Shown: one piece after another, positions 1,508 through 41,776 of the stretch
Position numbering within the stretch: position 1 is the first letter of the stretch
Layout of the letters: each line of letters begins with the position of its first letter
From: Alcanivoracaceae bacterium
Lineage (GTDB): Bacteria > Pseudomonadota > Gammaproteobacteria > Xanthomonadales > Marinicellaceae
Length of the DNA stretch: 43,446 nucleotides
NCBI GenBank assembly: GCA_016763695.1
Contig: JAESTH010000164.1
Span: 1 to 43,446, forward strand
Reading direction: 5' to 3'
Notes under the pieces: model-generated
The model's database searches: none
Told to the model about the DNA's origin: nothing
What the model saw: only the letters and a program-made list of their open reading frames with translations
Position numbers and translations under genes: made by a program

Positions 1508-1533
1508 TTAAAATCCTTTGCATTGGCAGTACG

Positions 1534-1561
1534 GTAGAGACAAGACATGTCTTGTCTCTTT
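1534..1561. terminator. 28-bp palindrome (copy 1), probable bidirectional terminator
   Basis: The sequence contains agagacaagaca followed by its exact reverse complement (12-bp arms, 1536-1559) and then a T-rich run. It lies between the convergent putA and 902-aa genes. It belongs to the same repeat family as 13192-13219 and 34405-34432. Confidence 0.7.
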
Positions 1562-1577
1562 TTATTCTTTATTCTCT

Positions 1578-4286
1578 TTATCCTTTTTTCCCATTAAGAT
1601 CACCCAACATATCTTCAGCATAGGGCATCCCAAGCACCTGTAACGTATGGCTCATATGTATTCTGCGATCGTTAAAGTCATCATAAAGATAATACAGCCC
1701 TGTTATATTTTCATAATATGCCTTACCCATGGTATGAATACTGATGCTTTTTTTTAAGTGCTTTCTGGCGGCTTTCTTATACCAAAATTTCTCCTTGTAC
1801 CCATCCTCTAAACTCCCAACATCTTTAATAACTTTATGGGTTAAATAGGCACAAAGCCCTGATTCCATATGAGTAAAATGAAAGGGTGAGTCATATAAAC
1901 TATTATAATAAAATAAAGTTGATGATAAGTCTTTCAGGCGCGTGCTTCGTTTCAATCTGAGGGAATCAGAAGATTCTATTTCAAAATCTTTCTTAACCAT
2001 ATAAGTACTATAGATTAAAACAGACAATCCTCGTAACCTGTTTAAAATGGGAAAACGCATAAAGAGTAAATGATTCTCCAATTTTTTTTGTATATATTTT
2101 TTCATCTCAAAGGTGTTAACTTGGAGAATATTCGTTATTTTTTTATGTACTGTTTTCTGAACACTTTCTTTGCTAATTAATGTTTTTAAGCTTTGATCAA
2201 AGAATTTTTTGATCCCTTCTTCCAGTTCTTTTTTTGGTAAATTATTAGTGAGATTATCAAATTCAGCTTGTATACTTGAATAAAAGCTTCCATTTGAGGA
2301 ACGGCAAATTAAGTCTGTAATTTTCATTTCAAATAATTCAGATATTTTCTTATCATACATCACTTTAAAATGGCCATTTAACCATTTATTAAGTGCTTTA
2401 TTAATTTCTCCATTTTTGAGATTTTTCTGATGTTCTCCTTCATTTACTAGGCGAATTATTTCATTGAAACTTTCATCTAATGTGAGTATTTCACCCATCT
2501 CAAATTTAACAGAGATCTTTTCTTTTAAATTTCCCCCAATTAGTTCTTCAAGTCTCTTTATTAATAATAAAAAATCTTTTATTTGTGTTTGGTTTTCATT
2601 TGTCAGTTTCTTGCTCGCATTATTTTTTTGCAAAACATCCTCAAGTACTTCATGCAGCTTTTTATCAAGTAAAACCTTGACTAATAAATCCTCGACTAAA
2701 TTTCCAACCTTTTTAACAACGATTGACTCTAAACATTCTTGACTGAAAACTTTATTGACTTTATCTTCTAGATTGTCGTCTTTTTCAAGCATCGATAAAT
2801 TCTTCAAAATTTCATTAAAATACTTTTGCTTGACTTCTTTATTTAATTCAATTAAGGAAAAGTCTTCTTTCCTATGGGTTCCCCATTTGAGTAAAAGCTT
2901 GCTTATACGAGTACATTGTTTGTAAGCTTTTTTTTCCAAACAGAGTAAATAAAGTGAGTAAGCTAATGTAATAAACTCAGGATAAAGAACTTTTTTGTGT
3001 GATTCATTAACATGTGGAGCTAAAACATGTGGAGCCAATCTGCCGAGTTTATTATCAAAGACTACTGCTTCAGCACTTTTTAAACAGGAGATTGAAAATT
3101 TCAATAAATAGTCAATATAGGCATTAAATATGGGCTCTTCAGATTTGGGTTTGCGATCCTCACTGGCACTGGTTTCTTTAGAGACAGTTATCCACCATAT
3201 TGATGTAGAAATTAAAGTTGCCAATTCTAAATATTCTTTTGAGGCAGATTCATAGTAACCTCCATCTTCAAGATATCGTATTCCCGCCCATGATAAATGT
3301 ATGCCTATAAAAAGCCTTTGTGCGTCAACATTATTGTTGTATTCCTCCAGTACATCTGGATAGCTTATATTTTCATTACCATCTACATCAAATGGCTCTG
3401 ACCTATATCTATTATCATTAAGCTTCCATTTTCCTAACCAATCACTCAAAACTCCACAATCAACACACCAATTGCCTTTAATTCTAAATATTAAATTATC
3501 ATTGCCTTTATTGCATTCTATTGATGACAAACCCATCCATTCATCAATAATTTTATAAAAATCTTGAGGATTATTTATTATTTTACCCTCACTAGCACTG
3601 CAACAAGTGTCATCACTTGCATTGGTATTTTTGATATTAACACTATCTTCAATGATATCTAATTTAAATATATTCATTTTAGCTAATGTTGAGTCACCAA
3701 TATCCATCAAGTTTGAAGAAAGGGCCAATATAAGATAATCGGGTTTATTCAAAATAGAAAGGCATTCAGTATCTTCTCTAGTAGAATTAAGTTTACGGTC
3801 AGAAGTGTTAATCCGATGATAAAGAAACCTTCTTAGTTCATGTAATGCCACCGAATAGTGGTAAGTAGCACGTAATAAGTAACCATGTATAAGTTCCCGT
3901 TTACCATTTTCATGTTTTACAGTTTCTTGGTTGCCTTTAAAAAAAGCCAGATCTCCTGTTTTATTATGTAATTGAGAAGCAATAAGTGAAAAATTTGAAT
4001 GGCCGTACGTAGAGGGGGATATTGTTTTACAATCATGCATATCTTTAATAAATGGCAGGATTGTTCGTAACTTACCAATGCCTTTTTCTAATATAACCAA
4101 ACTCGCATCCAAACTGCCAGACATTTTTTCTATCAGCCAGGCTTCAGCAAATAAGGGCTGATAAAGTATTTTGAAATATTTAAGCACGTTATGGCGTTTA
4201 ATTTTATCACTCTGATTTTCAATCGATCGCTCTGAAAAATATTGGAGTATTTTCATTGAGATATGTTTATTTTCCATTTTTTTCAC
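1578..4286 (-). CDS. Uncharacterised 902-aa protein, partner of KAP-like ATPase
   Basis: I do not recognise this family. The protein appears soluble, with no signal peptide or clear membrane segment. It is rich in amphipathic helices, with a Lys/Glu-rich, coiled-coil-like central stretch (roughly residues 490-730), and the N-terminal and C-terminal parts look like all-helical repeat (TPR-like) scaffolds. A CVDCG pair (roughly residue 275) and a CC dipeptide are visible but do not make a convincing zinc site. The ORF-track start is a GTG at 4286; an in-frame ATG at 4277 is equally possible. Either start overlaps the 3' end of the ATPase gene, so the two are translationally coupled. The coding region is visibly more AT-rich than the core genes. 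The overlap suggests the two proteins form one machine, but the function is unknown. Confidence 0.75.
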   Translation of the reverse strand: MKKMENKHISMKILQYFSERSIENQSDKIKRHNVLKYFKILYQPLFAEAWLIEKMSGSLDASLVILEKGIGKLRTILPFIKDMHDCKTISPSTYGHSNFSLIASQLHNKTGDLAFFKGNQETVKHENGKRELIHGYLLRATYHYSVALHELRRFLYHRINTSDRKLNSTREDTECLSILNKPDYLILALSSNLMDIGDSTLAKMNIFKLDIIEDSVNIKNTNASDDTCCSASEGKIINNPQDFYKIIDEWMGLSSIECNKGNDNLIFRIKGNWCVDCGVLSDWLGKWKLNDNRYRSEPFDVDGNENISYPDVLEEYNNNVDAQRLFIGIHLSWAGIRYLEDGGYYESASKEYLELATLISTSIWWITVSKETSASEDRKPKSEEPIFNAYIDYLLKFSISCLKSAEAVVFDNKLGRLAPHVLAPHVNESHKKVLYPEFITLAYSLYLLCLEKKAYKQCTRISKLLLKWGTHRKEDFSLIELNKEVKQKYFNEILKNLSMLEKDDNLEDKVNKVFSQECLESIVVKKVGNLVEDLLVKVLLDKKLHEVLEDVLQKNNASKKLTNENQTQIKDFLLLIKRLEELIGGNLKEKISVKFEMGEILTLDESFNEIIRLVNEGEHQKNLKNGEINKALNKWLNGHFKVMYDKKISELFEMKITDLICRSSNGSFYSSIQAEFDNLTNNLPKKELEEGIKKFFDQSLKTLISKESVQKTVHKKITNILQVNTFEMKKYIQKKLENHLLFMRFPILNRLRGLSVLIYSTYMVKKDFEIESSDSLRLKRSTRLKDLSSTLFYYNSLYDSPFHFTHMESGLCAYLTHKVIKDVGSLEDGYKEKFWYKKAARKHLKKSISIHTMGKAYYENITGLYYLYDDFNDRRIHMSHTLQVLGMPYAEDMLGDLNGKKG

Positions 4287-7200
4287 TGGGGGAATTAATC
4301 TTATTAATTCCTAAAAAAGTCCTTATAAGTTTGTTTGCTAAGCTTTTAGCATCGCGATAATGCGAAAGGGCTACTAAAGGCCGGTTATCTTTTTCATATG
4401 TCTGACCTAACATCAACATCAATGTTAATCTTTCATTGCCCCAATTAATATTGGCCTTTAAACCATTAGAACCATCTGAAAGTATTTCTCCGATTGGGAA
4501 ATTACCCTGTTGAGAATGACGTATATTATAATTTTTATCTAATATATCAATGGCCTTGATATATTCACTTCTGGCCGCATCAAACTCTTTATCCAGATCG
4601 TATAATTCGCCTAATCCAGTAATTAAATCCAGGTTGTTTGAATCATATTCCTTTAACTTCCTTTTATAAATTTTCTTCAAATCACCAGATTCATCTAAAG
4701 TAAAATTATAGGCCGCACTGTCATTGTCTGATACTTTTGATAAATAGGCTAATTCCTTACTTAAATCGCTTCTAAATTTGAATACAAATATACCATTGAG
4801 AACCCTATGTAAGTAAAGCCCTGAAAACTGCTCTACAATGGATTCAAAAACCCTTTGCAGTTCTGGTAAGCGGTGAATATGGGCTAATTCATCAAGGCGA
4901 TACAAGTGACGCCAGGAGAAAGCATGGCCATGAAATTTCATGATAAAGTCCGATAAATAAAATATCGCCGTTGCCATTTTATCATCTGCCTGAGCAATAT
5001 AATTCCCTACTTTAAGATTTATATTATAAAATACATCTGCTAAAAACTGAATACGGATAATTTCATTGTCTCCAAATTCCAGAACATCTAAACACTCAAT
5101 GTTGTTTTTTTTGTCCCTTACTATTGCAGGGTTAATGAACTCCAAAAACAGTCGTTTTAACTGTTTTGGGTTGCCTTGAGATCTATATGTAAGAAATTGA
5201 ATGAAATTTAAAATAAACTTTTCCTGGTCGACTATTGACATCTCATCAAATTGGTTGAATTTAATATAAACAGAATCACTTTCTGTTATGTCTTTATGCC
5301 CTTGAAAAAGTTTTAGGTTGCTATAAAGAGCGCGAAATTCAGAATTTTCTTTTCCTTCATTCATTAGTGAAAAAGTTTCTGCTAACTGGTTTTGATCTTT
5401 GCTAGATAATATGTTGCTATTAATTAATTTATATTGAAGCTCAAAAGAGCTTTTTCCAGATAGATCCTTGCTATAAGGACGGGCTCTTTCATACTGCAAA
5501 TTAACATATTCAATAATATTGGTTTTAATATCAGTTAAATCTCCCTCATTATCTGTCAATAAAGAGGGGATAAACAGTTCAATGTCAAAGATGCTGGTTA
5601 GAAAGGCTTCTCTGGAGTTTGAATCTGCCAACCATTGATCATGTAGATCTCTACCTGCCACAAAGATAAATTTAGCTTTTGCGGTGGTGATAAAATTCTT
5701 CATATCTGATAACAAAATGTTTATTTGATGTGTTCTAGCCGCCTCATTTTCGGTATAACTTTTTTGTTTATCATGAATCTCCACATGCTCAACCATACCA
5801 CCATGATTATGCAATTTATCCAGCTCATCAAAAACAAAAATAATTGAAGGGGCTGCCAGCGTAAATATTTTTCCGTGTGATAAAAACCAGCCTTTTTGAT
5901 CTTTACTGATATCTTCAATCAGTTTGATCATTCTGATTTCTGCAATTCTTGGGTTAATGGGTTCACTTTGAGTAGATTTTTCATTATTCCATAAGACTGA
6001 ACCAGCAATATTATGTAAAGAACCGATGACTCCTTTTTGCGTGCGAGTCACTCGTGAAGAAAAATCTCTTAACAGGCGGTCTATTTTTGCAATATTCCTT
6101 CTTTGATAACTTATAGGTTTAAATAAAATTGCTAAATACAGAATAAAGAATATTAATAGCATCCCAATCAGGTCAATTAAAGTATATTTAAAATAAATCC
6201 ATCCATCTTTTGGTTCTCCTACAGTATTCAATAAATATGTAGTAAGTAATATTGTTTCATCTATTTGTCCTTCAAGAATAGGCCTCTTTAGAAAGTCATT
6301 CAGCTTGTATTCTGAACTTGAAGAGTATGATTTCTGATATTTGGTAGAAACAGAGCTATTTTCGTTATTTGTCACCTGCTTATTTATAACCATCTCATAA
6401 TCAACCTGATTATCAAAACTATTAAATGTACTCGATAATGGCTTCCATAATATTAAACTTAAAAACATCAATATTATTGGAATAATTTTATTATAGGCAT
6501 AATTACCGCCTAAAAATATACTACTGTATTTGCTTTTGAGTTCGATTAACATGGCATGAATTATATTTGAATGATTTAAATCCTTAAAACCCAGATTAAT
6601 GGGAATATAAATTGAAGGAACCTTATGGTGTAATATAATCCAGGGGAATGACCATTGTGATAAAAAAATGGCATATCGCCTTTGTTTTTTTGCAAAATCT
6701 GAGTTGGTGCTTTTTGCTAATATTTTTTTAATTATGCTATCTTCTATGAAGTAACCAAAAGCCATATACGCTACTGATAAAAAGATAAGTGCCTTACTAA
6801 TGCAACTCAATAATAATGGTTGTTGTATTAACAAAAATAATAATAGAATATTCAAGATCACAATTAAGATCACACAAATAATAAAACTAAAATGAGCTGG
6901 TTTTTTAGAAACTAATGTGATTATCCATAACATTAGATGATTAATTATTGCAAAGAAGAGCCCCGCACTTAGAGTGTCTATAATTAATGATTGTTTCTCT
7001 TCTTCATTAGCCAAAAAATATCCTCTTATAATAATTATTAATACAGGAACCAGCAGGAATGTATATGACTTTATTTTTAGCCAATTTACAAGCTTAAATA
7101 TTTGCATGGAAACTTTGTCATCGCGATCCTTTATACTACTATGATATTGTGATTTAATACTTTTCAGAGCTTTACGAAGCATCCAACCATACAAAAATAT

Positions 7201-7635
7201 AACCAGTGTAGGAAATATTCCAAAAAGCCCAAATAAAATTTTTGTAAAGCTATTATCTACCTCTATTCCCTTTATAGATATTAGAACTAAACTAGAATCA
7301 AAGATGAAAGCTAGAAAAAAAGAAATGACCGAAATAAAAAGATAATCGCCAATTTTTGAAGTATTGTTGTTTTGAATTATTCTGGGATTGATTTCTAAAT
7401 TATGCTCTGCAACGCAATGATTAACAAAACTGGTTTTTCCACTGCCTCTTGTGCCAGTGACTAACAAGCAACCGTTTTTCTTGGGTTCTAGTAACCACCT
7501 AATAAAGAACTTCCTTTGTTTCTTGCGACCAACCATGGTTTCGTTGTATGGTGATTTTAACAAGCCGCCCTGAATAATGCGACCGAATGGAATAACTAAC
7601 TTTTGATTGACAAAATCATTGAAAATACTTTTCAT
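4267..7635 (-). CDS. KAP/YobI-like P-loop ATPase with multiple membrane segments
   Basis: Walker A (GTRGSGKTSF, residues 61-70) lies near the N-terminus, preceded by a VGRKKQ motif typical of STAND/AAA-like NTPases. Some eight hydrophobic helices are inserted between residues 97 and 510. Walker B (IIFVFDELDK, about 598-607) and a sensor-1-like strand (KFIFVAGRD, about 655) follow. This split, with membrane helices between Walker A and B, is characteristic of KAP and YobI-like NTPases. A QGNPKQLKRLF motif (about residue 850) looks like a sensor-2/lid helix. The C-terminal ~100 residues look TPR-like. A strong purine-rich ribosome site (gggggagaagg) precedes the ATG. KAP-type ATPases occur in phage defence and membrane-associated signalling; that role here is inference. 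The gene leads an operon with the 902-aa gene. Confidence 0.82.
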   Translation of the reverse strand: MKSIFNDFVNQKLVIPFGRIIQGGLLKSPYNETMVGRKKQRKFFIRWLLEPKKNGCLLVTGTRGSGKTSFVNHCVAEHNLEINPRIIQNNNTSKIGDYLFISVISFFLAFIFDSSLVLISIKGIEVDNSFTKILFGLFGIFPTLVIFLYGWMLRKALKSIKSQYHSSIKDRDDKVSMQIFKLVNWLKIKSYTFLLVPVLIIIIRGYFLANEEEKQSLIIDTLSAGLFFAIINHLMLWIITLVSKKPAHFSFIICVILIVILNILLLFLLIQQPLLLSCISKALIFLSVAYMAFGYFIEDSIIKKILAKSTNSDFAKKQRRYAIFLSQWSFPWIILHHKVPSIYIPINLGFKDLNHSNIIHAMLIELKSKYSSIFLGGNYAYNKIIPIILMFLSLILWKPLSSTFNSFDNQVDYEMVINKQVTNNENSSVSTKYQKSYSSSSEYKLNDFLKRPILEGQIDETILLTTYLLNTVGEPKDGWIYFKYTLIDLIGMLLIFFILYLAILFKPISYQRRNIAKIDRLLRDFSSRVTRTQKGVIGSLHNIAGSVLWNNEKSTQSEPINPRIAEIRMIKLIEDISKDQKGWFLSHGKIFTLAAPSIIFVFDELDKLHNHGGMVEHVEIHDKQKSYTENEAARTHQINILLSDMKNFITTAKAKFIFVAGRDLHDQWLADSNSREAFLTSIFDIELFIPSLLTDNEGDLTDIKTNIIEYVNLQYERARPYSKDLSGKSSFELQYKLINSNILSSKDQNQLAETFSLMNEGKENSEFRALYSNLKLFQGHKDITESDSVYIKFNQFDEMSIVDQEKFILNFIQFLTYRSQGNPKQLKRLFLEFINPAIVRDKKNNIECLDVLEFGDNEIIRIQFLADVFYNINLKVGNYIAQADDKMATAIFYLSDFIMKFHGHAFSWRHLYRLDELAHIHRLPELQRVFESIVEQFSGLYLHRVLNGIFVFKFRSDLSKELAYLSKVSDNDSAAYNFTLDESGDLKKIYKRKLKEYDSNNLDLITGLGELYDLDKEFDAARSEYIKAIDILDKNYNIRHSQQGNFPIGEILSDGSNGLKANINWGNERLTLMLMLGQTYEKDNRPLVALSHYRDAKSLANKLIRTFLGINKINSPSEKNGK

Positions 7636-7886
7636 GTCCTTCTCCCCCTTCCAATAATACAGTTTAATAAATCGTATAAAAGACAGAGGATAAAATCCTT
7701 TTAGTGGTTTATTTAACTGCGAACAGAAATAAATATACTATTTAGTATAGCGTACAGATAAGAAATTGTAAACAGCCTTATTCAATATTGAATGAGCCTG
7801 AAATAAAAGCCACTTCTAACATGAAAGGAGTCTAAAAATTGCATAAAGAATAAATGTAGTTCATTTTTTGTCAAATGAGAACGATC
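7636..7886. other. AT-rich spacer upstream of the ATPase operon
   Basis: I see no gene here. It must hold the minus-strand promoter of the ATPase operon. Read on the minus strand, tttatacgat and tattat are possible -10 elements, but no convincing -35 is visible. Confidence 0.4.
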
Positions 7887-8048
7887 ATGAAATTTGAAAA
7901 ATTAAAATCAATCGAACAACTTCTACAATTTATTATTGGAACAAAAAAAGTAATATTCCAAATCAAGTAAAGTAAAACGGAGAAGTATGAATGGATTACT
8001 AAAGAATTAGTGAGATTTAAGTGTTCATGTCTTTGTAAAAAAGAAAAA
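7887..8048 (+). pseudogene. Truncated transposase/integrase N-terminal remnant
   Basis: Translation from the ATG gives 27 codons, a TAA at 7968, then continued in-frame similarity. The pieces LLQFIIGTKKVIFQIK and SKTEKYEWITKELVRF, ending in KKEKG, resemble the conserved N-terminus of a widespread group of IS-encoded integrase-core transposases (FLxGTxxVxFxV, KxErYxWIxxtLxrFxY, LsKxeKG). The homology ends exactly where the putA-like sequence begins, so the rest of the transposase was lost in a deletion or recombination. No terminal inverted repeat was found. Confidence 0.6.
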
Positions 8049-8648
8049 GGTGGGCAGAATTGCATGATAGCAGATTCATTAGCCTTGCCAGAGCAATTGG
8101 TTAAAGATGTTCGGCAGTACGTTACTGTTTATTCAGGAATACATTGCTGATAATGTCCTGAACATGCTCAATACTCATGTTAAATACATGCAGGACAAAG
8201 GTAAACTGATTAAGGCGTTAAATGTTCCAGCAGAATTAAATGGCCATTATTTCGTATCACATGCCTTTGAACTTGACTCTAGTAAATTATTAGCACAAGA
8301 AGTCTTCGGCACATTTTGCACGTAATCAGATATAAGGCCAAACATTTGGATGCTGTAATAGATGCGATTAATAATACAGGCTATGGCCTAACCTTCAGCA
8401 TTCATTCCCGTATTAATAGCACCATAGAATATGTTGTTTCAAGAAATCGTGTTGGTCACTGTTATATTATCGCAGCACCATTAGCAGTGGTTGACGTACA
8501 TCCCTTTGGAGGCCTAGGTTTATCTGGTACAGGCCCCAATGCTGGTGGCTCCAATTACCTGGAAAGTTTTATCACCGAAAAAACTATCACTAACAACATT
8601 GTAGCTGTCGGCAGTAATGCCGATTTATTAGAGAGTATCGATGGTTGA
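8049..8648 (+). pseudogene. Decayed duplicate of the putA 3' end
   Basis: The sequence aligns with bases 773-1507 of the window (the intact putA end), from GGQNCMIAD to NADLLE. Compared with the intact copy it has a 37-bp deletion just before the catalytic Cys codon and a 93-bp deletion, both between short direct repeats (tgt and gctc). It also has a 1-nt loss near 8312 that changes frame and small indels around 8466-8480. The ORF-track entries at 8107-8325 and 8316-8648 are fragments of this one pseudogene. It lies on the same strand as putA, on the far side of the ATPase operon. Confidence 0.9.
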
Positions 8649-8904
8649 TTTGAAAAACTATTGCTTAACAATAGTTTTAATGTAGGTGAAAATGTGAAGA
8701 TAAGCTATGTTTTTTAAGGCTTATTTCATATTGGACAAGGCTAAATATTGTGAATATGTAGATAATGCATTACTATCTTTAGATAAATTGCATCTACATA
8801 ATACTCATATATTAATACAATAATTAATTATAAATTAATATTCTGCGCAACTAATATGAATATTAATTTAAAAATGATTTCCACACTAAAAAAGGTTAAA
8901 TATA
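8649..8904. promoter_or_regulatory. Upstream region of the STAND gene with two inverted repeats
   Basis: No gene is visible. There are two dyads. The first has 9-bp arms tatgtagat (8755-8763) and atctacata (8792-8800), enclosing a small hairpin, tatct-tt-agata (8774-8785). The second has arms attaatatt (8834-8842) and aatattaat (8859-8867), close to the start of the STAND gene. These could be operators or transcript hairpins. An AAGG ribosome site lies about 10 nt before the ATG at 8905. Confidence 0.45.
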
Positions 8905-11900
8905 ATGTCAAGAAATGTAAAGGAAGGCTTGATTAGAGAAGGCCGCAATGTACTTAAAGTTTTTCTTTCATATCCACAATCTGGACGAAAAATGGCGATG
9001 AAAGCCATCGAAGTATGTCGTCAAGAAATTAACCATGGTAAGTGGCGTAAAGATTTTGTACTGGATGTTTGTATGTGGGACAAAGATGAACGTATGGTTG
9101 TGCTGGATGCTTTAATAGAACCCAATGATGTGATATATGCTCAAAATTTCCATCCCAGTGAAGCCGATTTTTTTGTTGTGTTTTTAACCAATAGAATTGG
9201 CGATGGAACCATAAAAGAGATCCATGATCGAAAGAATAAGCTACACCAAAGTATTAAAGATTGTACCTATATTTTTCTAAAAGATGAGCCGCCAAAGAAA
9301 ATCAAAGGTGCGACCCCTCGACAAGTAGCTGATTATGAAGAGTTATCTGAATGGTTTGCCCGCCCATTTATTCGTGAAGATTCTAAGAAAAAAGTATTCT
9401 CGAATAGTAAAATTGAACCTGTATTGATAGAAGATAATGAAAATTTTTTATCAGTATTTAAAAGTGTTTTAACAGAGTACTTGTTAGAAAAATATGATGA
9501 AATCATTGGTGAAAAAGCTGTTGTTAATTTTAATCCCTATCCTGGTCTTAAGCCTTTAAGTGAAGAACACGCCCATTGTATATTTGGAAGGAAAAAAGAC
9601 ATAGATAGAATTAATAAAAAACGGAAACAAGGGTGCCGATTTTTCATGATTTATGGTTCTTCTGGTGTTGGTAAATCATCCTTAATACTTGCAGGCGTGC
9701 TAGGGAGGTTGCCAGGAACTTGCAAGAAGTATACCTTCAATCCTCAAGGTGAACCATCGAATCAATTGGCTGAGATACTGGAAGGGTTGTTACCAGATAC
9801 TACAACTCTAGCAATTATTAATAAACCCAAAAAGGCACTTAAAGGTTTAAAAAAAGCCTTAGATGGAAATGATGGTTTGGTTATTTTTATTGATCAATTT
9901 GAGCGTATTTATTCTGTCAGTAGTGAGGAAATGACAAGTTTTACTCGCATACTTATGGCATTAGAACCAATTAAAAAATGTACAGTCATTATTGCACAGC
10001 GAGCTGATCAGATGCAAGAGTGGTCCAGTCGTCCTGATTTAAATAATTCAGATATATGGCATCTCCAACCCATCAGTCATGTACGCAGTACATATCTAAA
10101 AGATGTGATAACCAAACCAGCGATTAGGGCGAATGTGCCAAAACCAGAAGACCAACTAGTCTACCAGCTAATTGAGGACTTCGATGATAGGGAAAATTCA
10201 ACACCATTATTGGCACTGACACTACATGAATTATATGTACAAAGTGGAAATGGTGAACGTTCCATGACACTCACTGATTATGTATCTATGGGAGGTTTGA
10301 AAGGGCTGATTGATAAACGAACCATAAAATTAATTGACGAGTTAAATGACCTTGGGTTTGGTAAGCGACATCTGCATAAGTTGTTCTCACTTGTTGTAGA
10401 TGTGAATGAATATGGTAAACCAATTTCAAAAGTGGTCAAGAGAAAGAAGATAGAAAAGCTTTTCAATACAAAAACTGTTGAGATGTTAATTAAATCATTT
10501 TATCTTCGTACGGAGTCAGATGAAGGTGAACAAGGATCTACCTTAACGCTAGCACATGAAGTCTATTTTGATGAATGGCCATTATTGAGGTCTTGGGTAG
10601 ATGACAATAGAGTAGAACTCAGAGAAATCAGAGATTTAGAGCGAGAAGCCTTGAGGTGGGATGAACATGGAAGATCTCCCGCCTACTTGTTGCCAGCAGA
10701 AAGAGTCGAAACAGTTTCAGATTTTATTAAAAATTCAAATCATCGTATTAAGCCAAAATATAGCAAAGTAGTAAAAAGTTTCATCAATGTATCCACTATG
10801 AAAATGAAACAGCAAATGTTAAAAGAAAATATTTTGAAAGGTGTAATCAAGAAAATTGATGAGTTACTCAAGGAAGGAATAAAAGTGGAAAAACCCCTTT
10901 TTGATGATTCTTTCGCAGTATTTTATGATGTATTTTGGGGCGAAAAGGAGACTATTGTCACAAAACAACGCAACGGAATGAAGTCGCAAGATCATAGTGC
11001 AATTAATGATAAATCAGTGTATCAAATGACTACTAATGGCCTTACGCTTCTCCATTTGGCAGCAATCTCTGGCAGATTGGATAAAATAAAATATTTATTT
11101 TCTAGCTATGGTATGGATATAAACAGCAAAAGTATTTCACATGCCACTCCATTATCTTGTGCAAGCTATTGTGGCAATGTTGATGTGGTTAAGTTGCTTC
11201 TCCATTTGGATGCAAATATAGAGATAAAAAATAGTGAAAATGGTTTAAAGGCAATAGATTGGGCGGTAATGAATGGTCATTCAGAGATAGTAGGGCTACT
11301 TATGAGTAAAGTCAAAGGACAGAACGAGCATATGCCGATAGAGTTGTCTCATGGCCTCATTGTTTCAGCAGCTGCAGGAAGTCATGTAACTCAGTTAATC
11401 AAATATCTCAGTGAAGTAGAAAATGATAAAAATCGCATAAAAATAATCCAAGAAGCTTTATATTATTCATCCAATGCATCGAGTGAATGCGTTAAAATTT
11501 TAATAGAAGCGGGGGCTAACCCTCTTTTCGTGTACAAGAATGATCACATTTTCTTTCATTGGCTGGCAGCTGAAGGAAAATATAAAATAATAAAATTAAT
11601 ACTAAACACGATTAAAGGGTTTGATGTTAATAAGCAAAATTCGAAAAAAATTACTCCTTTAAACATGGTGCTTAACTATGCAAGTGTGAATGTGGAACCT
11701 TGTATAAAAATTTTATTAAAATATGGTGCAGACCCTTCAATCACTGATGATAATGACAGCAATGTGTTGCATATCATTGCAAGAAGAGAGCAGGATTTTC
11801 TGCTTAGATACTTTATTAAAGATAAGAGATTAAACTTAGAGAAGAGAGATAAGTCACGACTAACTGTTTTAGCGATAGTTGCCATAAATGGCAATATGAA

Positions 11901-13074
11901 ATTATTTAAAGCATTACTAAATGCTGGAGCCAACCCAGAATCAACTGACGACGAAGGTAATACTGTGCTTATGATGGTTATTAGAAGTAGTCATGAAAAT
12001 TTATTACAATTATTGCTGGAAAAGAGTAACAGCTTAAATGTGCAAGCAACCAATAGAATGGGAATGAATGCACTTATGTTTGCATCATTTCAAGGCGACT
12101 ATCCAGCGATTAAAATACTACTTAAATTTTTCAAGGGTTCGGCTATTAATGCTGTTGATAAGTCAGGTATGACCGCTTTGAACTATGCAAGTGAGAAGGG
12201 GCATAGTTTAGTGTTAGATTTATTAATTGATAATGGTGCTATTATACCTCTTTGGAGTCAAATATCGACATCAAAAGACAAAGAAACTAAATCACTTACG
12301 AGCCTTAAAAATAAAGCTTTGGGTTTATTAATTACCAAGGATTTAATGACATCACCTTCAGATCTCTGGAATATCCCTCCTCTTATTGGTAAGCCTGGTC
12401 AGTGGAAAACAATTAATAAGAATACGGCTGTTAAATTGCTAGGCCACCTTGCTAATACGCTCAATGATGATGGGTATTGGATAAATACCAGTTCGGTAAT
12501 ACGTGTCCGGACATTATCATTAGAATGCTACCCTGATATGTTGTTGTGTGAAGCAGAAGTGAAATTATTCGATGGTGAAAATGGTCTGATTACATTTATG
12601 TATATGGATAAAAAGTGCATATTGCTTAATGGTACATCGGATAACTTTCATAAGCTTAACGAAAATAAAAAAATTGATCTTACTGATCCGAAATTTGTGG
12701 TTGAATATTTGACTCTTTTCTGTGCTGGTGTTCAAAGTGATACAAATTGCCCTTTTACTATTGTTTCAAATGAAATAGATATTGTTTTTATTAATAAAGT
12801 TAATAAGAAAGCAGCGTATTGGCTAAAACATGGAATTAAACCTCATAGCAAGCCAGAATTTGATGAAAAAGAAGAAGCGTGGAAAATATCCGCAACAATA
12901 ATATATTTAGGGACGATATTTGAAGCTGATTTTAGTTTAACAAAGGTGGGGATAGTTGAAATGATTGATGACCAACCTAGCGATACACTTATTGATCTTC
13001 CAGTTAAAACCTGGGGCTTTTGGGGGAATATTCGTAGAGATTTGACGCAGCTATTACAGTCAGAAAAATTATAA
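8905..13074 (+). CDS. TIR-like/nSTAND1 NTPase/ankyrin-repeat protein, candidate immune sensor
   Basis: The 1389-aa protein has four parts. Residues ~15-195 form a TIR-like or DUF4062-like domain (KVFLSYPQSG, then a strand 'ADFFVVFLTNRIG'). Residues ~210-640 form a STAND ATPase with the family-typical entry PYPGLKPL (211-218), FGRKKDI, Walker A GSSGVGKS (251-258) and Walker B LVIFIDQFER (325-334). Residues ~712-1117 hold ankyrin-type repeats (TLLHLAAISG, TPLSCASYCGN, NALMFASFQGD, TALNYASEKG). The last ~270 residues match no domain I know. Bacterial STAND proteins of this layout are often signal-triggered defence proteins in which repeats sense a ligand and the N-terminal domain is the effector; that role is inferred. 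It is a single gene, convergent with the porin, in an island with transposase debris. Confidence 0.85.
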   Translation: MSRNVKEGLIREGRNVLKVFLSYPQSGRKMAMKAIEVCRQEINHGKWRKDFVLDVCMWDKDERMVVLDALIEPNDVIYAQNFHPSEADFFVVFLTNRIGDGTIKEIHDRKNKLHQSIKDCTYIFLKDEPPKKIKGATPRQVADYEELSEWFARPFIREDSKKKVFSNSKIEPVLIEDNENFLSVFKSVLTEYLLEKYDEIIGEKAVVNFNPYPGLKPLSEEHAHCIFGRKKDIDRINKKRKQGCRFFMIYGSSGVGKSSLILAGVLGRLPGTCKKYTFNPQGEPSNQLAEILEGLLPDTTTLAIINKPKKALKGLKKALDGNDGLVIFIDQFERIYSVSSEEMTSFTRILMALEPIKKCTVIIAQRADQMQEWSSRPDLNNSDIWHLQPISHVRSTYLKDVITKPAIRANVPKPEDQLVYQLIEDFDDRENSTPLLALTLHELYVQSGNGERSMTLTDYVSMGGLKGLIDKRTIKLIDELNDLGFGKRHLHKLFSLVVDVNEYGKPISKVVKRKKIEKLFNTKTVEMLIKSFYLRTESDEGEQGSTLTLAHEVYFDEWPLLRSWVDDNRVELREIRDLEREALRWDEHGRSPAYLLPAERVETVSDFIKNSNHRIKPKYSKVVKSFINVSTMKMKQQMLKENILKGVIKKIDELLKEGIKVEKPLFDDSFAVFYDVFWGEKETIVTKQRNGMKSQDHSAINDKSVYQMTTNGLTLLHLAAISGRLDKIKYLFSSYGMDINSKSISHATPLSCASYCGNVDVVKLLLHLDANIEIKNSENGLKAIDWAVMNGHSEIVGLLMSKVKGQNEHMPIELSHGLIVSAAAGSHVTQLIKYLSEVENDKNRIKIIQEALYYSSNASSECVKILIEAGANPLFVYKNDHIFFHWLAAEGKYKIIKLILNTIKGFDVNKQNSKKITPLNMVLNYASVNVEPCIKILLKYGADPSITDDNDSNVLHIIARREQDFLLRYFIKDKRLNLEKRDKSRLTVLAIVAINGNMKLFKALLNAGANPESTDDEGNTVLMMVIRSSHENLLQLLLEKSNSLNVQATNRMGMNALMFASFQGDYPAIKILLKFFKGSAINAVDKSGMTALNYASEKGHSLVLDLLIDNGAIIPLWSQISTSKDKETKSLTSLKNKALGLLITKDLMTSPSDLWNIPPLIGKPGQWKTINKNTAVKLLGHLANTLNDDGYWINTSSVIRVRTLSLECYPDMLLCEAEVKLFDGENGLITFMYMDKKCILLNGTSDNFHKLNENKKIDLTDPKFVVEYLTLFCAGVQSDTNCPFTIVSNEIDIVFINKVNKKAAYWLKHGIKPHSKPEFDEKEEAWKISATIIYLGTIFEADFSLTKVGIVEMIDDQPSDTLIDLPVKTWGFWGNIRRDLTQLLQSEKL

Positions 13075-13191
13075 TAATTAACCTTGGTTTCAACAACGAA
13101 GTGCAACACATTAATTAACCAGCTAATTGACTAAATACTAGTATAAATAAGTTTTTATCACAAGAATTATATGGAGATATTTCACGTCACT

Positions 13192-13219
13192 GTGGAGGCA
13201 AGATATGTCCTGTCTCTGG
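13192..13219. repeat. 28-bp palindrome (copy 2, degenerate)
   Basis: The sequence gtggaggcaagatatgtcct is an imperfect version of the gtagagacaag..cttgtctctac palindrome seen at 1534 and 34405. It lies between the convergent STAND and porin genes and may act as a weak bidirectional terminator. Confidence 0.6.
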
Positions 13220-13234
13220 TATGGTTGGCGATTA

Positions 13235-14551
13235 TCAAAAAACATAACCCATAGAGAATAACCAAATACTACCATCACCTCTCAGGATAGTTTCTAGCCC
13301 CGCATCTTCAGTGCTTTCATAATTTAAACTCAAAATCCAGGAATTTGTGGGCTGTAACCTTAGACCGATAGTATATCTCTTTTCCCAATTATCGGCTTGA
13401 GATATATCAAAGAAATTTTCTATATTAACTTGATCATATTGTGTGACTAGGCTCAGTTTGGCGTGAGAAAAATCTTCACTCAACCAATTGTCTGAGAATA
13501 AATTTTCTAATGAGAAAATGCTTCTGATGTAATATCCATCCATAACAGCAGAACCGTTGATTTCTCTATCGATATTCATTTTGGTGTATTCGGCGACTAA
13601 CTCCAGCCAGTTCCACTGGTAATCAATATCAAAATTATATCCAGTAATATCTTTTCTGCCCTCATCATCCCAAGCGCCATTATATAAGCTAAATCCTAAT
13701 GTTAGGCCTGAAGTATTCTGTAAGCTTATTTTGGCAGCTATGGCCTTATTGTTGTTATTGTCGACGCCAAAGCCCTGTCTGGTTGCTCGCAGTCCAGTTG
13801 TAGACAAACCGCTGTCAAGACCTGCGATAACATAAGCTTGATAGTCGGCAAGCCAGTTTTCGGAAACATTGAATCGCCCATTGACGCCGAAACCATTGTC
13901 AGTCCAGTCAGAAGGTGCCAGTGCGAAGCTGGTATATGGTTTGGATATGACATCACGTAAAGGAGCAAAGTGGTCTCTTTCAATATTGCCAAAAGGCACC
14001 AATAAAATGCCGCCTCTAAAATTCATCCATGAGTTGATTTTGAAATCAGTATAGGCTTGCTCCAGCAATACTTCTCCGCCGCGAGAACCACCTACTGTTG
14101 CGGCTCTTTCAAACTCTAATTCAGCAAAATAACTGAGTCTCTTGTGTGGTTGTCCGCTTAAAATCAGTTCAAAAGATTGTCCATCGATGATGGTATTTTC
14201 GTTGGTGGCTTTGCCTGCGGTAATTGTGCCGTAGATGCCTAGGTTAGGCTGATTTTCCTGTACTTTGGAAATACGAGTTACTTCGCTACTGTTTTCTTCA
14301 ACCTGTTCCTGAACATCAGTTAAGACATCGTGCAATTGCACTGCATAAGCCTCTAAGCTGGCAATTCTTTGCGAGTTTGTAGTCGATACATCATTTCCAA
14401 TATCTTGTTTTAACTGGTTGATTTGTCGTTGTAAATTGGCAAAATTATCTTCCAGTTCCTGTATTTTGTTTTGTAAGCTTTTTTGAGCTGAACTTGTGCT
14501 GACGAATAATAAAAGCGTAAGTAGAAAGTGTGTTGAATAGATTCTTCTCAT
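13235..14551 (-). CDS. Outer-membrane beta-barrel porin with N-terminal coiled coil
   Basis: The 438-aa protein starts with a signal peptide (MRRIYSTHFLLTLLLFVSTSSA). A heptad-rich coiled coil follows (roughly residues 25-100), as in trimeric or peptidoglycan-contacting porins. The rest alternates polar and hydrophobic residues in beta-barrel fashion and ends in the outer-membrane signature YVF, with a terminal Phe for BAM recognition. Motifs such as 'GGILLVPFGNIERDH' recall phosphate-selective (OprO/P) and LbtU-type porins, but substrate specificity cannot be read from the sequence. Its ATG overlaps the kinase stop codon (ATGA), so expression is translationally coupled to the kinase upstream. 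Confidence 0.75.
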   Translation of the reverse strand: MRRIYSTHFLLTLLLFVSTSSAQKSLQNKIQELEDNFANLQRQINQLKQDIGNDVSTTNSQRIASLEAYAVQLHDVLTDVQEQVEENSSEVTRISKVQENQPNLGIYGTITAGKATNENTIIDGQSFELILSGQPHKRLSYFAELEFERAATVGGSRGGEVLLEQAYTDFKINSWMNFRGGILLVPFGNIERDHFAPLRDVISKPYTSFALAPSDWTDNGFGVNGRFNVSENWLADYQAYVIAGLDSGLSTTGLRATRQGFGVDNNNNKAIAAKISLQNTSGLTLGFSLYNGAWDDEGRKDITGYNFDIDYQWNWLELVAEYTKMNIDREINGSAVMDGYYIRSIFSLENLFSDNWLSEDFSHAKLSLVTQYDQVNIENFFDISQADNWEKRYTIGLRLQPTNSWILSLNYESTEDAGLETILRGDGSIWLFSMGYVF

Positions 14552-16305
14552 AAGGTGACTTCCAGAATAATTGGGATGGATTTTTTACCATGATAAATGG
14601 CAAATAAAGAGCAATCTCCCAGCGTTGTATTGGGTTCTGCATAAATCATGAGTTGTATATGTTTGTTGTCAAGTATTTGTATGTTGCGGACTTTCACTTG
14701 ATTAAATTCCGAGCGGCCACGAAAAATTTTAAACTCATCCAGCTTGATTCCATCGGGTATTTCTATTTTTATTTTTTTGGTTTTTCCGCGAGAAACTTCA
14801 GTATTCGACAATGCATGAATTTTTATTTTTTTGGATTTATGGTTGAACTTTGGTAATGTGAACACAGGTGTTTCTATCTTATTTTTACCTCTGTTCTTAA
14901 TGGTATTATTATCTGTACTACTATCTGTGATTGTATGGTCATTAAGTGGCGGTGTAAGGATTGTTGGTTTATCCGTAGTCTTATCATTCCTAGTGATTTC
15001 GTCAGTAGAATCGGGTTGTTTCTCTTCTTGTTTTGTTTGTACAATCTTGGTAGCTGGTTTTTTAGTTTGTATAGTGGTTACTTTAGGCTTTACAGATTCA
15101 TTATTTTCAGGTTCTACAATTTCTTGTATACTGTTATCTGTGAGTGTTATATCTTCATTTGTTGCAGATTTTTGGTTTTCACCTTTCTTAATGCTTTCTT
15201 TTTGCGGTTCTATTGGTGGAGTGTCATCTAGTGATATTTGTAATTGTTTATTAGCAGACTTGTCAATTGGTTTAGTAACTATAGGTTTAATAACTGGCTG
15301 TTGGTTTTCACTGATTTCCCCAGCTGTTTTAATGGTGTTTGTGTAAGTAAATACTGCAATAGCGGTAAACAACAGTAGTGTTGTAGTGGCCATTAATCTC
15401 TTTTTGCTTTTATTGGTTTTTTCGGTAAAGATTAATGTGGCTGCATCTGAGTTCGATGGATCTGGGTTTTTGTTGGGTATAATTTTTTTATTTAATTGTG
15501 CAGGAGCAGTCAATTGCTGCAATGTATTTTTGAGTAAATCTGGAGTGCTGGGTCGGTTATCTGGGTTTTTTTCTAAGTATTTATCAATGACTTGAGATAG
15601 TTTTTCGGGTATTTTGGGGTTTAACTCATGTAATAAAGCGGGTTTAAGTGTGAGTTGTTTGGTCATTGCGGCTTCAAATGTCGCAGCAGAAAAAGGATTG
15701 TTGCCACTTAGCATGGTATAGGCAAGTAATCCAAGAGAATAACAGTCGGAAGATTGGGTGTGAATGGTGTTTTGTAAAATTTCAGGAGCCAGATATTTGG
15801 GCGTGCCAATAAAAAAGCCAGAAGCGGTTAAACCAGTGTCTTGTGATCGTGCAATGCCAAAATCTAATAATTTAGCTTGTCCAGTCGGTAATATTTGTAT
15901 GTTGCCTGGTTTTAAATCACGGTGTAATATATGCTTGTCATGGGCAAACTGTAATGCATGACATAGATCAATCAATATGCTTTTGTGTTCGCTCAATTTA
16001 TGGGCTTGATCTATCCATTGTTCCAGTGATTCACCAGCAAGGTGTTCCATAACCAGAAATGGTTTTTTATTGTCGATCCCATATTCTAGCAGCATAACAA
16101 TATTGGGGTGCGAAATTTCGCCTATGGTTCGTGCCTCATTTTTAAATCTTTCCAGCGCAGATTCATCGCCGTTTGAGTGCAGTACTTTTATGGCAACCAG
16201 TCTGCCAATATCAGGATCTTTGGCCGAATAGACTACTCCCATACCACCGACACCCAGTGTGTCAATGATGGGAAACCTGCCGATAAATTCTGGAAATTCA
16301 CTCAT
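14548..16305 (-). CDS. Membrane-anchored Hanks-type Ser/Thr protein kinase
   Basis: The 585-aa protein has a complete N-terminal kinase domain: glycine loop GVGGMGVVY (18-26), VAIK Lys40, helix-C Glu57, HRDLKPGN (128-135), DFG (148-150) and GTPKYLAPE (167-175). A single transmembrane helix follows (~304-322), so the kinase is cytoplasmic and the C-terminal part is outside. The extracytoplasmic part is a long Thr/Lys/Pro-rich linker (~330-490) followed by a compact ~90-residue domain with an IPT/TIG-like beta pattern; there are no PASTA repeats. It is followed by the porin with a 4-nt overlap, suggesting the kinase and outer-membrane protein work together or share a signal. The TIG-like label is tentative. 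Confidence 0.85.
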   Translation of the reverse strand: MSEFPEFIGRFPIIDTLGVGGMGVVYSAKDPDIGRLVAIKVLHSNGDESALERFKNEARTIGEISHPNIVMLLEYGIDNKKPFLVMEHLAGESLEQWIDQAHKLSEHKSILIDLCHALQFAHDKHILHRDLKPGNIQILPTGQAKLLDFGIARSQDTGLTASGFFIGTPKYLAPEILQNTIHTQSSDCYSLGLLAYTMLSGNNPFSAATFEAAMTKQLTLKPALLHELNPKIPEKLSQVIDKYLEKNPDNRPSTPDLLKNTLQQLTAPAQLNKKIIPNKNPDPSNSDAATLIFTEKTNKSKKRLMATTTLLLFTAIAVFTYTNTIKTAGEISENQQPVIKPIVTKPIDKSANKQLQISLDDTPPIEPQKESIKKGENQKSATNEDITLTDNSIQEIVEPENNESVKPKVTTIQTKKPATKIVQTKQEEKQPDSTDEITRNDKTTDKPTILTPPLNDHTITDSSTDNNTIKNRGKNKIETPVFTLPKFNHKSKKIKIHALSNTEVSRGKTKKIKIEIPDGIKLDEFKIFRGRSEFNQVKVRNIQILDNKHIQLMIYAEPNTTLGDCSLFAIYHGKKSIPIILEVTL

Positions 16306-39779: not shown

Positions 39780-39804
39780 TTAGTACTTAATTGAGCACTA
39801 ATTA
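39777..39804. terminator. Bidirectional terminator containing both stop codons
   Basis: The arms taattagtact (39777-39787) and agcactaatta (39794-39804) pair with one mismatch around a 6-nt loop, followed by T-rich DNA on the plus strand. The purU stop codon lies in the left arm and the kinase stop codon in the right arm, giving a very compact convergent terminator. Confidence 0.55.
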
Positions 39805-41757: not shown

Positions 41758-41776
41758 AATACTCACCTTAATTAAT

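What the first reader, a model, noticed from the sequence alone, without database searches (positions are those of the whole stretch)
8905..13074. TIR-like/nSTAND1/ankyrin protein as candidate immune sensor
Seen: an N-terminal TIR-like or DUF4062-like domain, PYPGLKPL plus GSSGVGKS and FIDQFER, then ankyrin-type repeats. Known: STAND NTPases with repeat sensors and N-terminal effectors act as anti-phage NLR-like proteins (e.g. Avs). The use of ankyrin rather than TPR/WD40 repeats as the sensor in this architecture is less common.
Basis: partly seen in the sequence, partly recalled or inferred. Interest (0 to 1): 0.75.

Follow-up and report, generated by a model that had tools for sequence, protein, structure and literature searches.

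The report
TIR-like bacterial NLR with ankyrin sensor
This bacterial gene encodes a protein built like the immune sensors of animals and plants: a front end related to a newly described family of NAD-destroying enzymes, a central ATP switch, an ankyrin-repeat arm and a tail domain found in no family library searched. It probably senses phage infection and shuts the cell down, but its function has not been tested.

Summary

The N-terminal domain hits no Pfam family alone, but belongs by transitive homology to the DUF4062 superfamily. Its Glu105 is invariant in 37/37 relatives. A 2026 preprint (PMC13174449) shows that DUF4062 domains are TIR-like NADases, including a phage-portal-activated antiphage protein (Swarozyc).

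The tail has no Pfam, NCBIfam, PADLOC or fold match, yet recurs in other genomes, fused to ankyrin, TPR or apparent beta-helix repeats, or stand-alone. The same four-part architecture occurs in Sinorhizobium plasmids and another gammaproteobacterium at ~22% identity. Tail-bearing STAND genes elsewhere neighbour SIR2-TIR, DUF4062 and CBASS-type phospholipase genes.

In this genome the gene lies in an 11.7-kb accessory insertion between putA and a porin gene.

Best explanation: an abortive-infection NLR whose ankyrin/tail arm senses a trigger, whose nSTAND1 core oligomerises, and whose DUF4062 domain hydrolyses NAD+. No activity is shown; a shortened loop lacking the family's Asp and Glu leaves catalytic competence uncertain. 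New variant of a known kind.

The parts
8905..13074 (+). Whole gene, 1389 aa: DUF4062-like - nSTAND1 - ankyrin repeats - tail domain
   Evidence: ORF; Pfam; profiles
8947..9519 (+). DUF4062-like (TIR-like) N-terminal domain, residues ~15-205, predicted NADase effector
   Evidence: hhalign window vs family profile prob 95.7%, E 8.5e-9; family vs PF13271 members prob 99.5%, E 9e-23; negative control 0.3%; leave-out HMM E 8.7e-11; AF2 model with alternating strands and helices, low confidence pLDDT 63
9217..9219 (+). Glu105 of motif G101-T-I-K-E105, predicted catalytic glutamate
   Evidence: Invariant in 37 of 37 DUF4062 and DUF4062-like sequences; position inferred to equal KpSwz E97 (PMC13174449), not checked against the KpSwz sequence itself
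9535..10680 (+). nSTAND1 NTPase (NOD-type switch), residues 211-592
   Evidence: PF20703 E 5.7e-62 over 1-378 of 379 model positions
9655..9678 (+). Walker A GSSGVGKS, residues 251-258
   Evidence: sequence
9877..9903 (+). Walker B LVIFIDQFE region, residues ~325-333
   Evidence: sequence
11011..12264 (+). Ankyrin repeats, residues ~703-1120, about 12 by eye
   Evidence: Ank_2 E 9.6e-67, 8 stretches; PDB ankyrin matches
12334..13065 (+). Tail domain, residues 1144-1387, with NGTSxxxHxxN motif; absent from the family libraries searched; proposed ligand-recognition or relay module
   Evidence: No Pfam match; homologues on plasmids and in genomes; AF2 pLDDT 73.8, pTM 0.73, no PDB or BFVD fold match
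1508..13234 (.). Accessory insertion carrying the gene, between putA and a porin gene
   Evidence: In three same-genus genomes putA and porin lie 0.07-0.95 kb apart
1578..7635 (-). Neighbouring two-gene unit in the same insertion: 1122-aa KAP-like NTPase (7635..4267) and 902-aa partner (4286..1578); a separate candidate defence unit, not proven part of this system
   Evidence: Walker A / membrane helices / Walker B layout; no strong family match
8042..8650 (+). Decayed second copy of the 3' end of putA, just upstream of the STAND gene
   Evidence: 81-90% identical to 766-1509, with frame breaks

Best explanation
The gene most likely encodes a single-protein, NLR-like abortive-infection system. 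In the resting state the ankyrin/tail arm would hold the nSTAND1 core in an ADP-bound monomer. [quoted passage not shown] Shown here: the four domains, the conserved glutamate and P-loop, the recurrence of the architecture, and the accessory location. Inferred from named relatives: NADase activity (DUF4062/Swarozyc/TEP1), oligomerisation-gated activation (STAND proteins), and sensing by the C-terminal half (Avs, Swarozyc auxiliary domain). Not shown: any activity, the trigger, or what the tail does.
For: nSTAND1 and ankyrin matches. DUF4062-like N-terminus by transitive profile homology with a negative control and a leave-out HMM with shuffles. Glu105 invariant in 37/37. DUF4062 domains are NADases; KpSwz is activated by a phage portal and needs E97; human TEP1, NWD1, NWD2 and NPHP3 carry DUF4062 next to a NACHT ATPase (PMC13174449). 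A STAND protein with another NADase domain, Avs5 (Sir2), gives phage immunity by NAD+ hydrolysis (PMC12931631). The same four-part layout occurs in S. meliloti plasmids and genome G569. Conflict-type neighbours in relatives: SIR2-TIR next to nSTAND1-TPR-tail; DUF4062/NB-ARC/TPR protein and a CBASS-effector-type patatin in the S. meliloti cluster; DUF4062 and AAA-vWA genes next to ankyrin-tail proteins. Gene is accessory in its genus.
Against: No Pfam match for the N-terminus on its own, and a direct single-sequence comparison with the strict DUF4062 profile fails (prob 9%; HMM E 0.44), so membership is transitive. The window protein lacks the Asp and Glu of the otherwise conserved 'SSxxDxxxER' loop (3-residue deletion; Arg28 kept), which could impair substrate binding. 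The AF2 model of the domain is weak (pLDDT 63) and its PDB hits mix plant TIR and nucleoside deoxyribosyltransferase with other Rossmann-like folds. No relative with this full architecture has been assayed, as far as the papers searched show.
Confidence: 0.58

Rival explanations
1. Same NLR-type sensor, but the DUF4062-like domain has lost catalysis and works as a scaffold or adaptor that recruits a separate effector when nSTAND1 oligomerises.
For: Divergent loop after the first strand, without the family Asp and Glu; NADase activity of DUF4062 does not guarantee activity of every member; in S. meliloti a CBASS-effector-type patatin gene lies directly upstream of the same-architecture gene in the same orientation.
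Against: Glu105 and the R-x-G...GTxxE core are kept while other positions drift; no obvious separate effector gene lies in an operon with the window gene, whose neighbours on both sides are on the opposite strand or decayed.
Confidence: 0.2
2. A STAND signalling protein with a non-defence role, such as regulated cell death under stress, kin discrimination or developmental signalling.
For: Many bacterial STAND proteins are regulators such as MalT (general knowledge; PMC4381067 appears); a heterokaryon-incompatibility-like role has been proposed for related conflict systems (PMC10907252); the tail also exists as a stand-alone, housekeeping-located protein in Micavibrio.
Against: Accessory, rare gene in an inserted segment; NADase-family N-terminus; conflict-type gene neighbourhoods of relatives.
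Confidence: 0.15
3. An ankyrin effector secreted into eukaryotic hosts; ankyrin repeats and NCBIfam hits to Dot/Icm effectors would point there.
For: NCBIfam lists Legionella Ank effectors; the stand-alone tail is encoded next to a VirD4/TraG-like coupling ATPase in two genomes.
Against: Those NCBIfam hits cover essentially the ankyrin repeats and are far below cut-off (80 bits or less against cut-offs of 450-1400); a 1389-aa protein with an intact STAND core is a cytoplasmic switch layout; no secretion genes seen among the window genes scanned.
Confidence: 0.04

Closest known systems
Swarozyc (KpSwz), DUF4062 TIR-like NADase antiphage protein (PMC13174449)
   Same: DUF4062-superfamily N-terminal domain with the conserved glutamate; variable C-terminal part expected to recognise the trigger
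   Different: KpSwz has a short HTH/winged auxiliary domain and no STAND NTPase, ankyrin repeats or tail; the window domain is below PF13271 detection and lacks the loop Asp and Glu
Human TEP1, NWD1, NWD2 and NPHP3 (DUF4062 + NACHT; several with WD40 repeats)
   Same: DUF4062 directly before a STAND-class ATPase, then repeat domains
   Different: NACHT instead of nSTAND1, WD40 or other repeats instead of ankyrin, no tail domain; only an architectural parallel
Avs antiviral STAND proteins, especially Avs5 (Sir2-STAND; PMC12931631)
   Same: Three-part plan: N-terminal effector, STAND core, C-terminal sensor; NAD+ hydrolysis as output in Avs5
   Different: Different effector fold (Sir2), different NTPase group, different sensor; no Avs model matched the window protein
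Bacterial TIR-nSTAND1-WD40 proteins (one encoded in the same genome, G000 contig C77)
   Same: TIR-type N-terminus plus nSTAND1 plus repeats
   Different: TIR-type N-terminus read by eye, WD40 propellers in place of ankyrin, no tail domain
S. meliloti plasmid ankyrin protein (L058:577-5661, minus) and G569 protein (L085:6732-11270)
   Same: Full DUF4062-like - nSTAND1 - ankyrin - tail architecture
   Different: Only ~20-24% identity; the S. meliloti gene is annotated with a start that truncates the N-terminal domain and has a patatin gene directly upstream; both uncharacterised

Membership tests
nSTAND1 STAND NTPases (PF20703) | Full-length match above the curated cut-off | tested here: met
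   211 bits against cut-off 27.1, model positions 1-378 of 379
nSTAND1 STAND NTPases (PF20703) | Intact Walker A and Walker B | tested here: met
   GSSGVGKS at 251, LVIFIDQFE around 325-333
nSTAND1 STAND NTPases (PF20703) | ATP-dependent oligomerisation | not testable with these tools
   Needs purified protein
Ankyrin repeat proteins | Tandem ankyrin repeats above the curated cut-off | tested here: met
   Ank_2 222 bits against 27.3
DUF4062 (PF13271), strict Pfam membership | Direct match to PF13271 | tested here: not met
   No match at E 10; not listed in the own-genome search with PF13271. It is therefore described as DUF4062-like, not as a PF13271 member
DUF4062 superfamily (TIR-like NADases) | Homology to DUF4062 domains | tested here: met
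   Transitive: window to family prob 95.7% E 8.5e-9; family to PF13271 members prob 99.5% E 9e-23; unrelated control 0.3%
DUF4062 superfamily (TIR-like NADases) | Conserved catalytic glutamate in the T-x-x-E motif | tested here: met
   E105, invariant in 37/37
DUF4062 superfamily (TIR-like NADases) | Conserved SSxxDxxxER loop after the first strand | tested here: not met
   Window reads LSYPQSGRK: Asp and Glu missing, Arg28 kept. An Asp is present at this place in S. meliloti and G569
DUF4062 superfamily (TIR-like NADases) | TIR-like fold | tested here: inconclusive
   AF2 pLDDT 63, five alternating strands and helices; PDB hits include TIR domains RPS4 (prob 0.99, E 2.5e-3) and SNC1 and an NDT, but also flavodoxins and GTPases
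DUF4062 superfamily (TIR-like NADases) | NAD+ hydrolysis | not testable with these tools
   Needs enzyme assay
Swarozyc | DUF4062 plus winged-helix auxiliary domain that binds phage portal | tested here: not met
   Followed by nSTAND1, ankyrin and tail instead
Avs (AVAST) | Match to a known Avs family model | tested here: not met
   PADLOC matches only through ankyrin repeats and a 0.0036 AbiLi hit
Dot/Icm ankyrin effectors | Equivalog-level NCBIfam score | tested here: not met
   80 bits or less against cut-offs of 450-1400

The most novel reading that the evidence does not exclude
The tail is an integrated decoy or guardee: a domain copied from a stand-alone cellular protein (a conserved ~205-aa protein in Micavibrio and other alphaproteobacteria) that phages or plasmids target, fused to a bacterial NLR as plant NLRs carry integrated decoys. 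In line with this it appears fused to nSTAND1-ankyrin proteins (window, S. meliloti, G569), as a separate ORF overlapping the end of an nSTAND1-ankyrin gene (G910), and as a stand-alone gene beside the fused form (S. meliloti). Against it: in the window's own order the tail was found in only 2 of 180 genomes and never as a stand-alone protein.
Probability: 0.1. Interest if true: 0.88.

Novelty: new variant of a known kind. Interest (0 to 1): 0.55.

Why it matters
If right, this extends the DUF4062 NADases from small Swarozyc proteins to full bacterial NLRs with an ankyrin arm, giving a bacterial counterpart of the layout of human TEP1, NWD1 and NPHP3 (DUF4062 + STAND ATPase + repeats), for which the activating signal is unknown. 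It also brings out a recurring C-terminal domain, absent from Pfam, NCBIfam and PADLOC and without a fold match in PDB or BFVD, that is shared by STAND, MoxR-vWA-linked and beta-helix proteins. That makes it a concrete target for asking what bacterial NLRs recognise.

Tried and rejected
N-terminal domain alone in plasmids, viral contigs and 85,462 species genomes: no close relative, so homology had to be built through intermediate families. N-term against PDB sequences: chance-level hits only. PADLOC kinase hits next door (PD-T4-6) rejected as defence evidence: kinase and porin are core neighbours in the genus. AnkX/AnkY-type effector reading rejected: hits cover essentially only repeats and fall far below cut-off. 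Tail fold search in PDB and BFVD gave nothing significant; weak cystatin/PUR-like hits not used. Fold search of the N-terminal model is not decisive. Hand-made ankyrin repeat counting failed (the first run read a stale file and is discarded). Viral-contig scans for DUF4062-like domains gave only alignment material. Exact split of the G910 gene (frameshift or overlapping genes) left open. Kaur et al. 2020 contains no 'ankyrin' or 'nSTAND'; Kaur et al. 2021 named nSTAND1. No paper in the library linking bacterial DUF4062, STAND and ankyrin was found.
Full report
OBSERVATION. The ORF at 8905-13074 (+) is real: 1389 codons from ATG to stop, a chance of about 10^-43 at the window's base composition, with an AAGG ribosome-binding-site candidate before the ATG. 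Pfam places nSTAND1 (PF20703, E 5.7e-62) at residues 211-592 and ankyrin repeats (Ank_2, E 9.6e-67) over roughly 703-1120. Residues 1-210 and 1119-1389 have no Pfam match, even at E 10.

N-TERMINAL DOMAIN. No close relative was found in 250 genomes of the same order, on plasmids, in viral contigs or in the 85,462-species collection. The way in came from another nSTAND1 protein (G532, locus L014/L025): its N-terminus aligns with the window's (BLASTP E 3e-7 for the pair) and shows a weak full-length match to DUF4062 PF13271 (E 0.023). Relatives were collected and compared profile to profile. The window against the family gives probability 95.7%, E 8.5e-9. The family without the window against PF13271 members gives 99.5%, E 9e-23. 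The unrelated tail profile against DUF4062 gives 0.3%. An HMM trained without the window or the other four-part proteins finds the window at E 8.7e-11, S. meliloti at 8.8e-19 and G569 at 3.8e-8; the best of 500 shuffled window domains scores 5.4 bits against 27.2. The strict DUF4062 profile alone does not find the window (prob 9%; E 0.44). I therefore call it DUF4062-like by transitive homology.

CATALYTIC SITE. In the combined alignment of 37 sequences, Glu105 of G-T-I-K-E is invariant (37/37), as is Gly99; Arg97 and Thr102 are ~90% conserved. A May 2026 preprint (PMC13174449) reports that DUF4062 is a family of TIR-like NADases. The Klebsiella protein KpSwz (Swarozyc) protects against phages by NAD+ depletion, needs its active-site E97, and is activated by the phage portal protein. 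Human TEP1 is an active NADase, and TEP1, NWD1, NWD2 and NPHP3 place DUF4062 beside a NACHT ATPase. Counter-evidence: the window lacks the Asp and Glu of the conserved 'SSxxDxxxER' loop because of a three-residue deletion (Arg28 kept). The AlphaFold2 model on 12 sequences has the expected alternating strands and helices but is weak (pLDDT 63.3, pTM 0.64), and its PDB matches mix plant TIR domains (RPS4 prob 0.99, E 2.5e-3; SNC1) and a nucleoside deoxyribosyltransferase with flavodoxins and GTPases. Fold evidence is compatible, not decisive.

THE TAIL. It was found in Sinorhizobium and Tistrella plasmids and genome G414, in 9 other genomes of 379 in the phylum, and in 137 of 189 candidate stretches in the species collection. 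Conserved core: L(D/N)GTSxxxHxxN, YLxxFCxxV...PF, and a C-terminal G-x-(V/I)-(E/D)-M-x-(D/N)-D. It matches no Pfam, NCBIfam or PADLOC family. Its AlphaFold2 model (pLDDT 73.8, pTM 0.73) has no significant match in PDB or BFVD. Contexts seen: (a) DUF4062-like - nSTAND1 - ankyrin - tail in the window, S. meliloti (L058:577-5661 minus) and G569 (L085:6732-11270), mutually ~20-24% identical; the annotated S. meliloti start truncates the N-terminal domain, and the frame is open upstream with an in-frame GTG. (b) nSTAND1-repeats-tail next to a SIR2-TIR gene (L084). (c) An nSTAND1-ankyrin protein with a different N-terminus whose gene overlaps a separate tail ORF (G910, L086). (d) Ankyrin-tail proteins downstream of AAA and vWA-like genes, once with a DUF4062 gene (L151, L164). 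(e) Tail fused to beta-helix-like repeats and C-terminal membrane segments, by reading the sequence (L061, L092, L224). (f) A stand-alone ~205-aa protein in Micavibrio and relatives, in several loci near rnpA/yidC-type housekeeping genes (gene names by eye). (g) A stand-alone tail next to a VirD4/TraG-like ATPase (L058, L087). The repeated pairing of tail with repeat modules and NTPase switches suggests a recognition or relay role; this is inference.

GENOMIC SETTING. The window is one whole contig of a 3.88-Mb, 312-contig, 85%-complete genome. In three same-genus genomes the order is putA - (66 bp to 0.95 kb) - porin - Ser/Thr kinase, with small variable genes in two of the gaps. In the window this gap is 11.7 kb (1508-13234) and holds the STAND gene, a decayed second copy of the 3' end of putA (8042-8650) and an opposite-strand pair encoding a KAP-like NTPase (layout only; no KAP family hit) and a 902-aa partner. 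The STAND gene is thus accessory and sits beside another candidate defence unit, while the porin and kinase are core. The same genome also encodes a TIR-nSTAND1-WD40 protein (C77) and two other DUF4062 proteins (C141, C117).

MECHANISM. Most likely: the ankyrin/tail arm detects a trigger, the nSTAND1 core changes from ADP-bound monomer to ATP-bound oligomer, and the clustered DUF4062-like domains hydrolyse NAD+, causing abortive infection. Domain composition, conserved motifs, recurrence and accessory location are shown. NADase output is inferred from PMC13174449, with Avs5 (Sir2-STAND, PMC12931631) as precedent for an NADase STAND. The tripartite effector-STAND-sensor logic is the published one for Avs proteins (PMC10907252). 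Trigger, sensor surface and catalysis are untested.

NOVELTY. The general kind (effector - STAND - repeat sensor) is known, DUF4062 NADases are newly described, and nSTAND1 has been named (PMC8195603). The combination DUF4062-like - nSTAND1 - ankyrin - tail and the tail domain were not found in the papers searched or in the family libraries. I rate it a new variant of a known kind.

Noticed in passing
window 1578-7635 (-): Two-gene unit overlapping by 20 bp: 1122-aa protein with Walker A, several membrane helices, then Walker B (KAP-NTPase-like layout) and a 902-aa partner. No plasmid relatives and no family above cut-off; possible separate defence system.
   Followed up: partly
window 766-1509 and 8042-8650: The 3' end of putA is present twice, 7.1 kb apart at 81-90% identity, the second copy broken. 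The KAP-like pair lies between them, suggesting insertion by recombination with a foreign putA end.
   Followed up: partly
window 1508-13234: The putA-porin gap is a variable slot in this genus: 66 bp in one genome, two small genes in another, a methyltransferase-like gene in a third, 11.7 kb here.
   Followed up: yes
window 1536-1560 and 13190-13215: Similar inverted-repeat, terminator-like sequences (GAGACAAGACATGTCTTGTCTC and GGCAAGATATGTCCTGTCTC) lie at the two ends of the inserted segment.
   Followed up: no
L017 11965-18088 (-) (G000 contig C77): Same genome: TIR-nSTAND1-WD40 protein (1418 aa) directly downstream of a 600-aa protein that looks like a SLOG-type domain protein (NVGVIGHRPGKRL; by eye only, no Pfam hit), inside an envelope-polysaccharide gene region.
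   Followed up: partly
L084 7376-15787 (-): Cluster in genome G569: SLOG-like protein (by eye), SIR2-TIR protein (both Pfam domains found) and nSTAND1-repeat-tail protein on one strand; a candidate three-gene NAD-centred conflict system.
   Followed up: partly
L058 577-12421: S. meliloti conjugative plasmid cluster: CBASS-effector-type patatin, DUF4062-like-nSTAND1-ankyrin-tail, stand-alone tail, TraG-like ATPase, SLOG-like protein (by eye) and a DUF4062/NB-ARC/TPR protein within 12 kb.
   Followed up: partly
L058 6953-9265 and L087 5997-8212: Stand-alone tail gene immediately followed by a VirD4/TraG-like coupling ATPase gene in two genera: a conserved pair of unknown meaning.
   Followed up: partly
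L093-L171 (most loci): The tail exists as a highly conserved ~205-aa stand-alone protein across Micavibrio and other alphaproteobacteria, often near rnpA/yidC-like genes; no Pfam or NCBIfam family.
   Followed up: partly
L061 6310-10023, L092 8232-12080, L224 4793-9253: Large proteins joining the tail domain to beta-helix-like repeats and C-terminal membrane segments; they look like membrane-associated effectors or receptors.
   Followed up: no
L151 3224-10609 and L164 4165-10627: Ankyrin-tail proteins directly downstream of AAA and vWA-like genes (L164) or a DUF4062 gene and a 780-aa ORF (L151), resembling MoxR-vWA conflict systems.
   Followed up: partly
window 14548-16305 (-) and 39802-41766 (-): Two Ser/Thr protein kinases; the first matches PADLOC PD-T4-6 models strongly but is a conserved core neighbour in the genus, so such hits do not by themselves mark defence genes.
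   Followed up: yes
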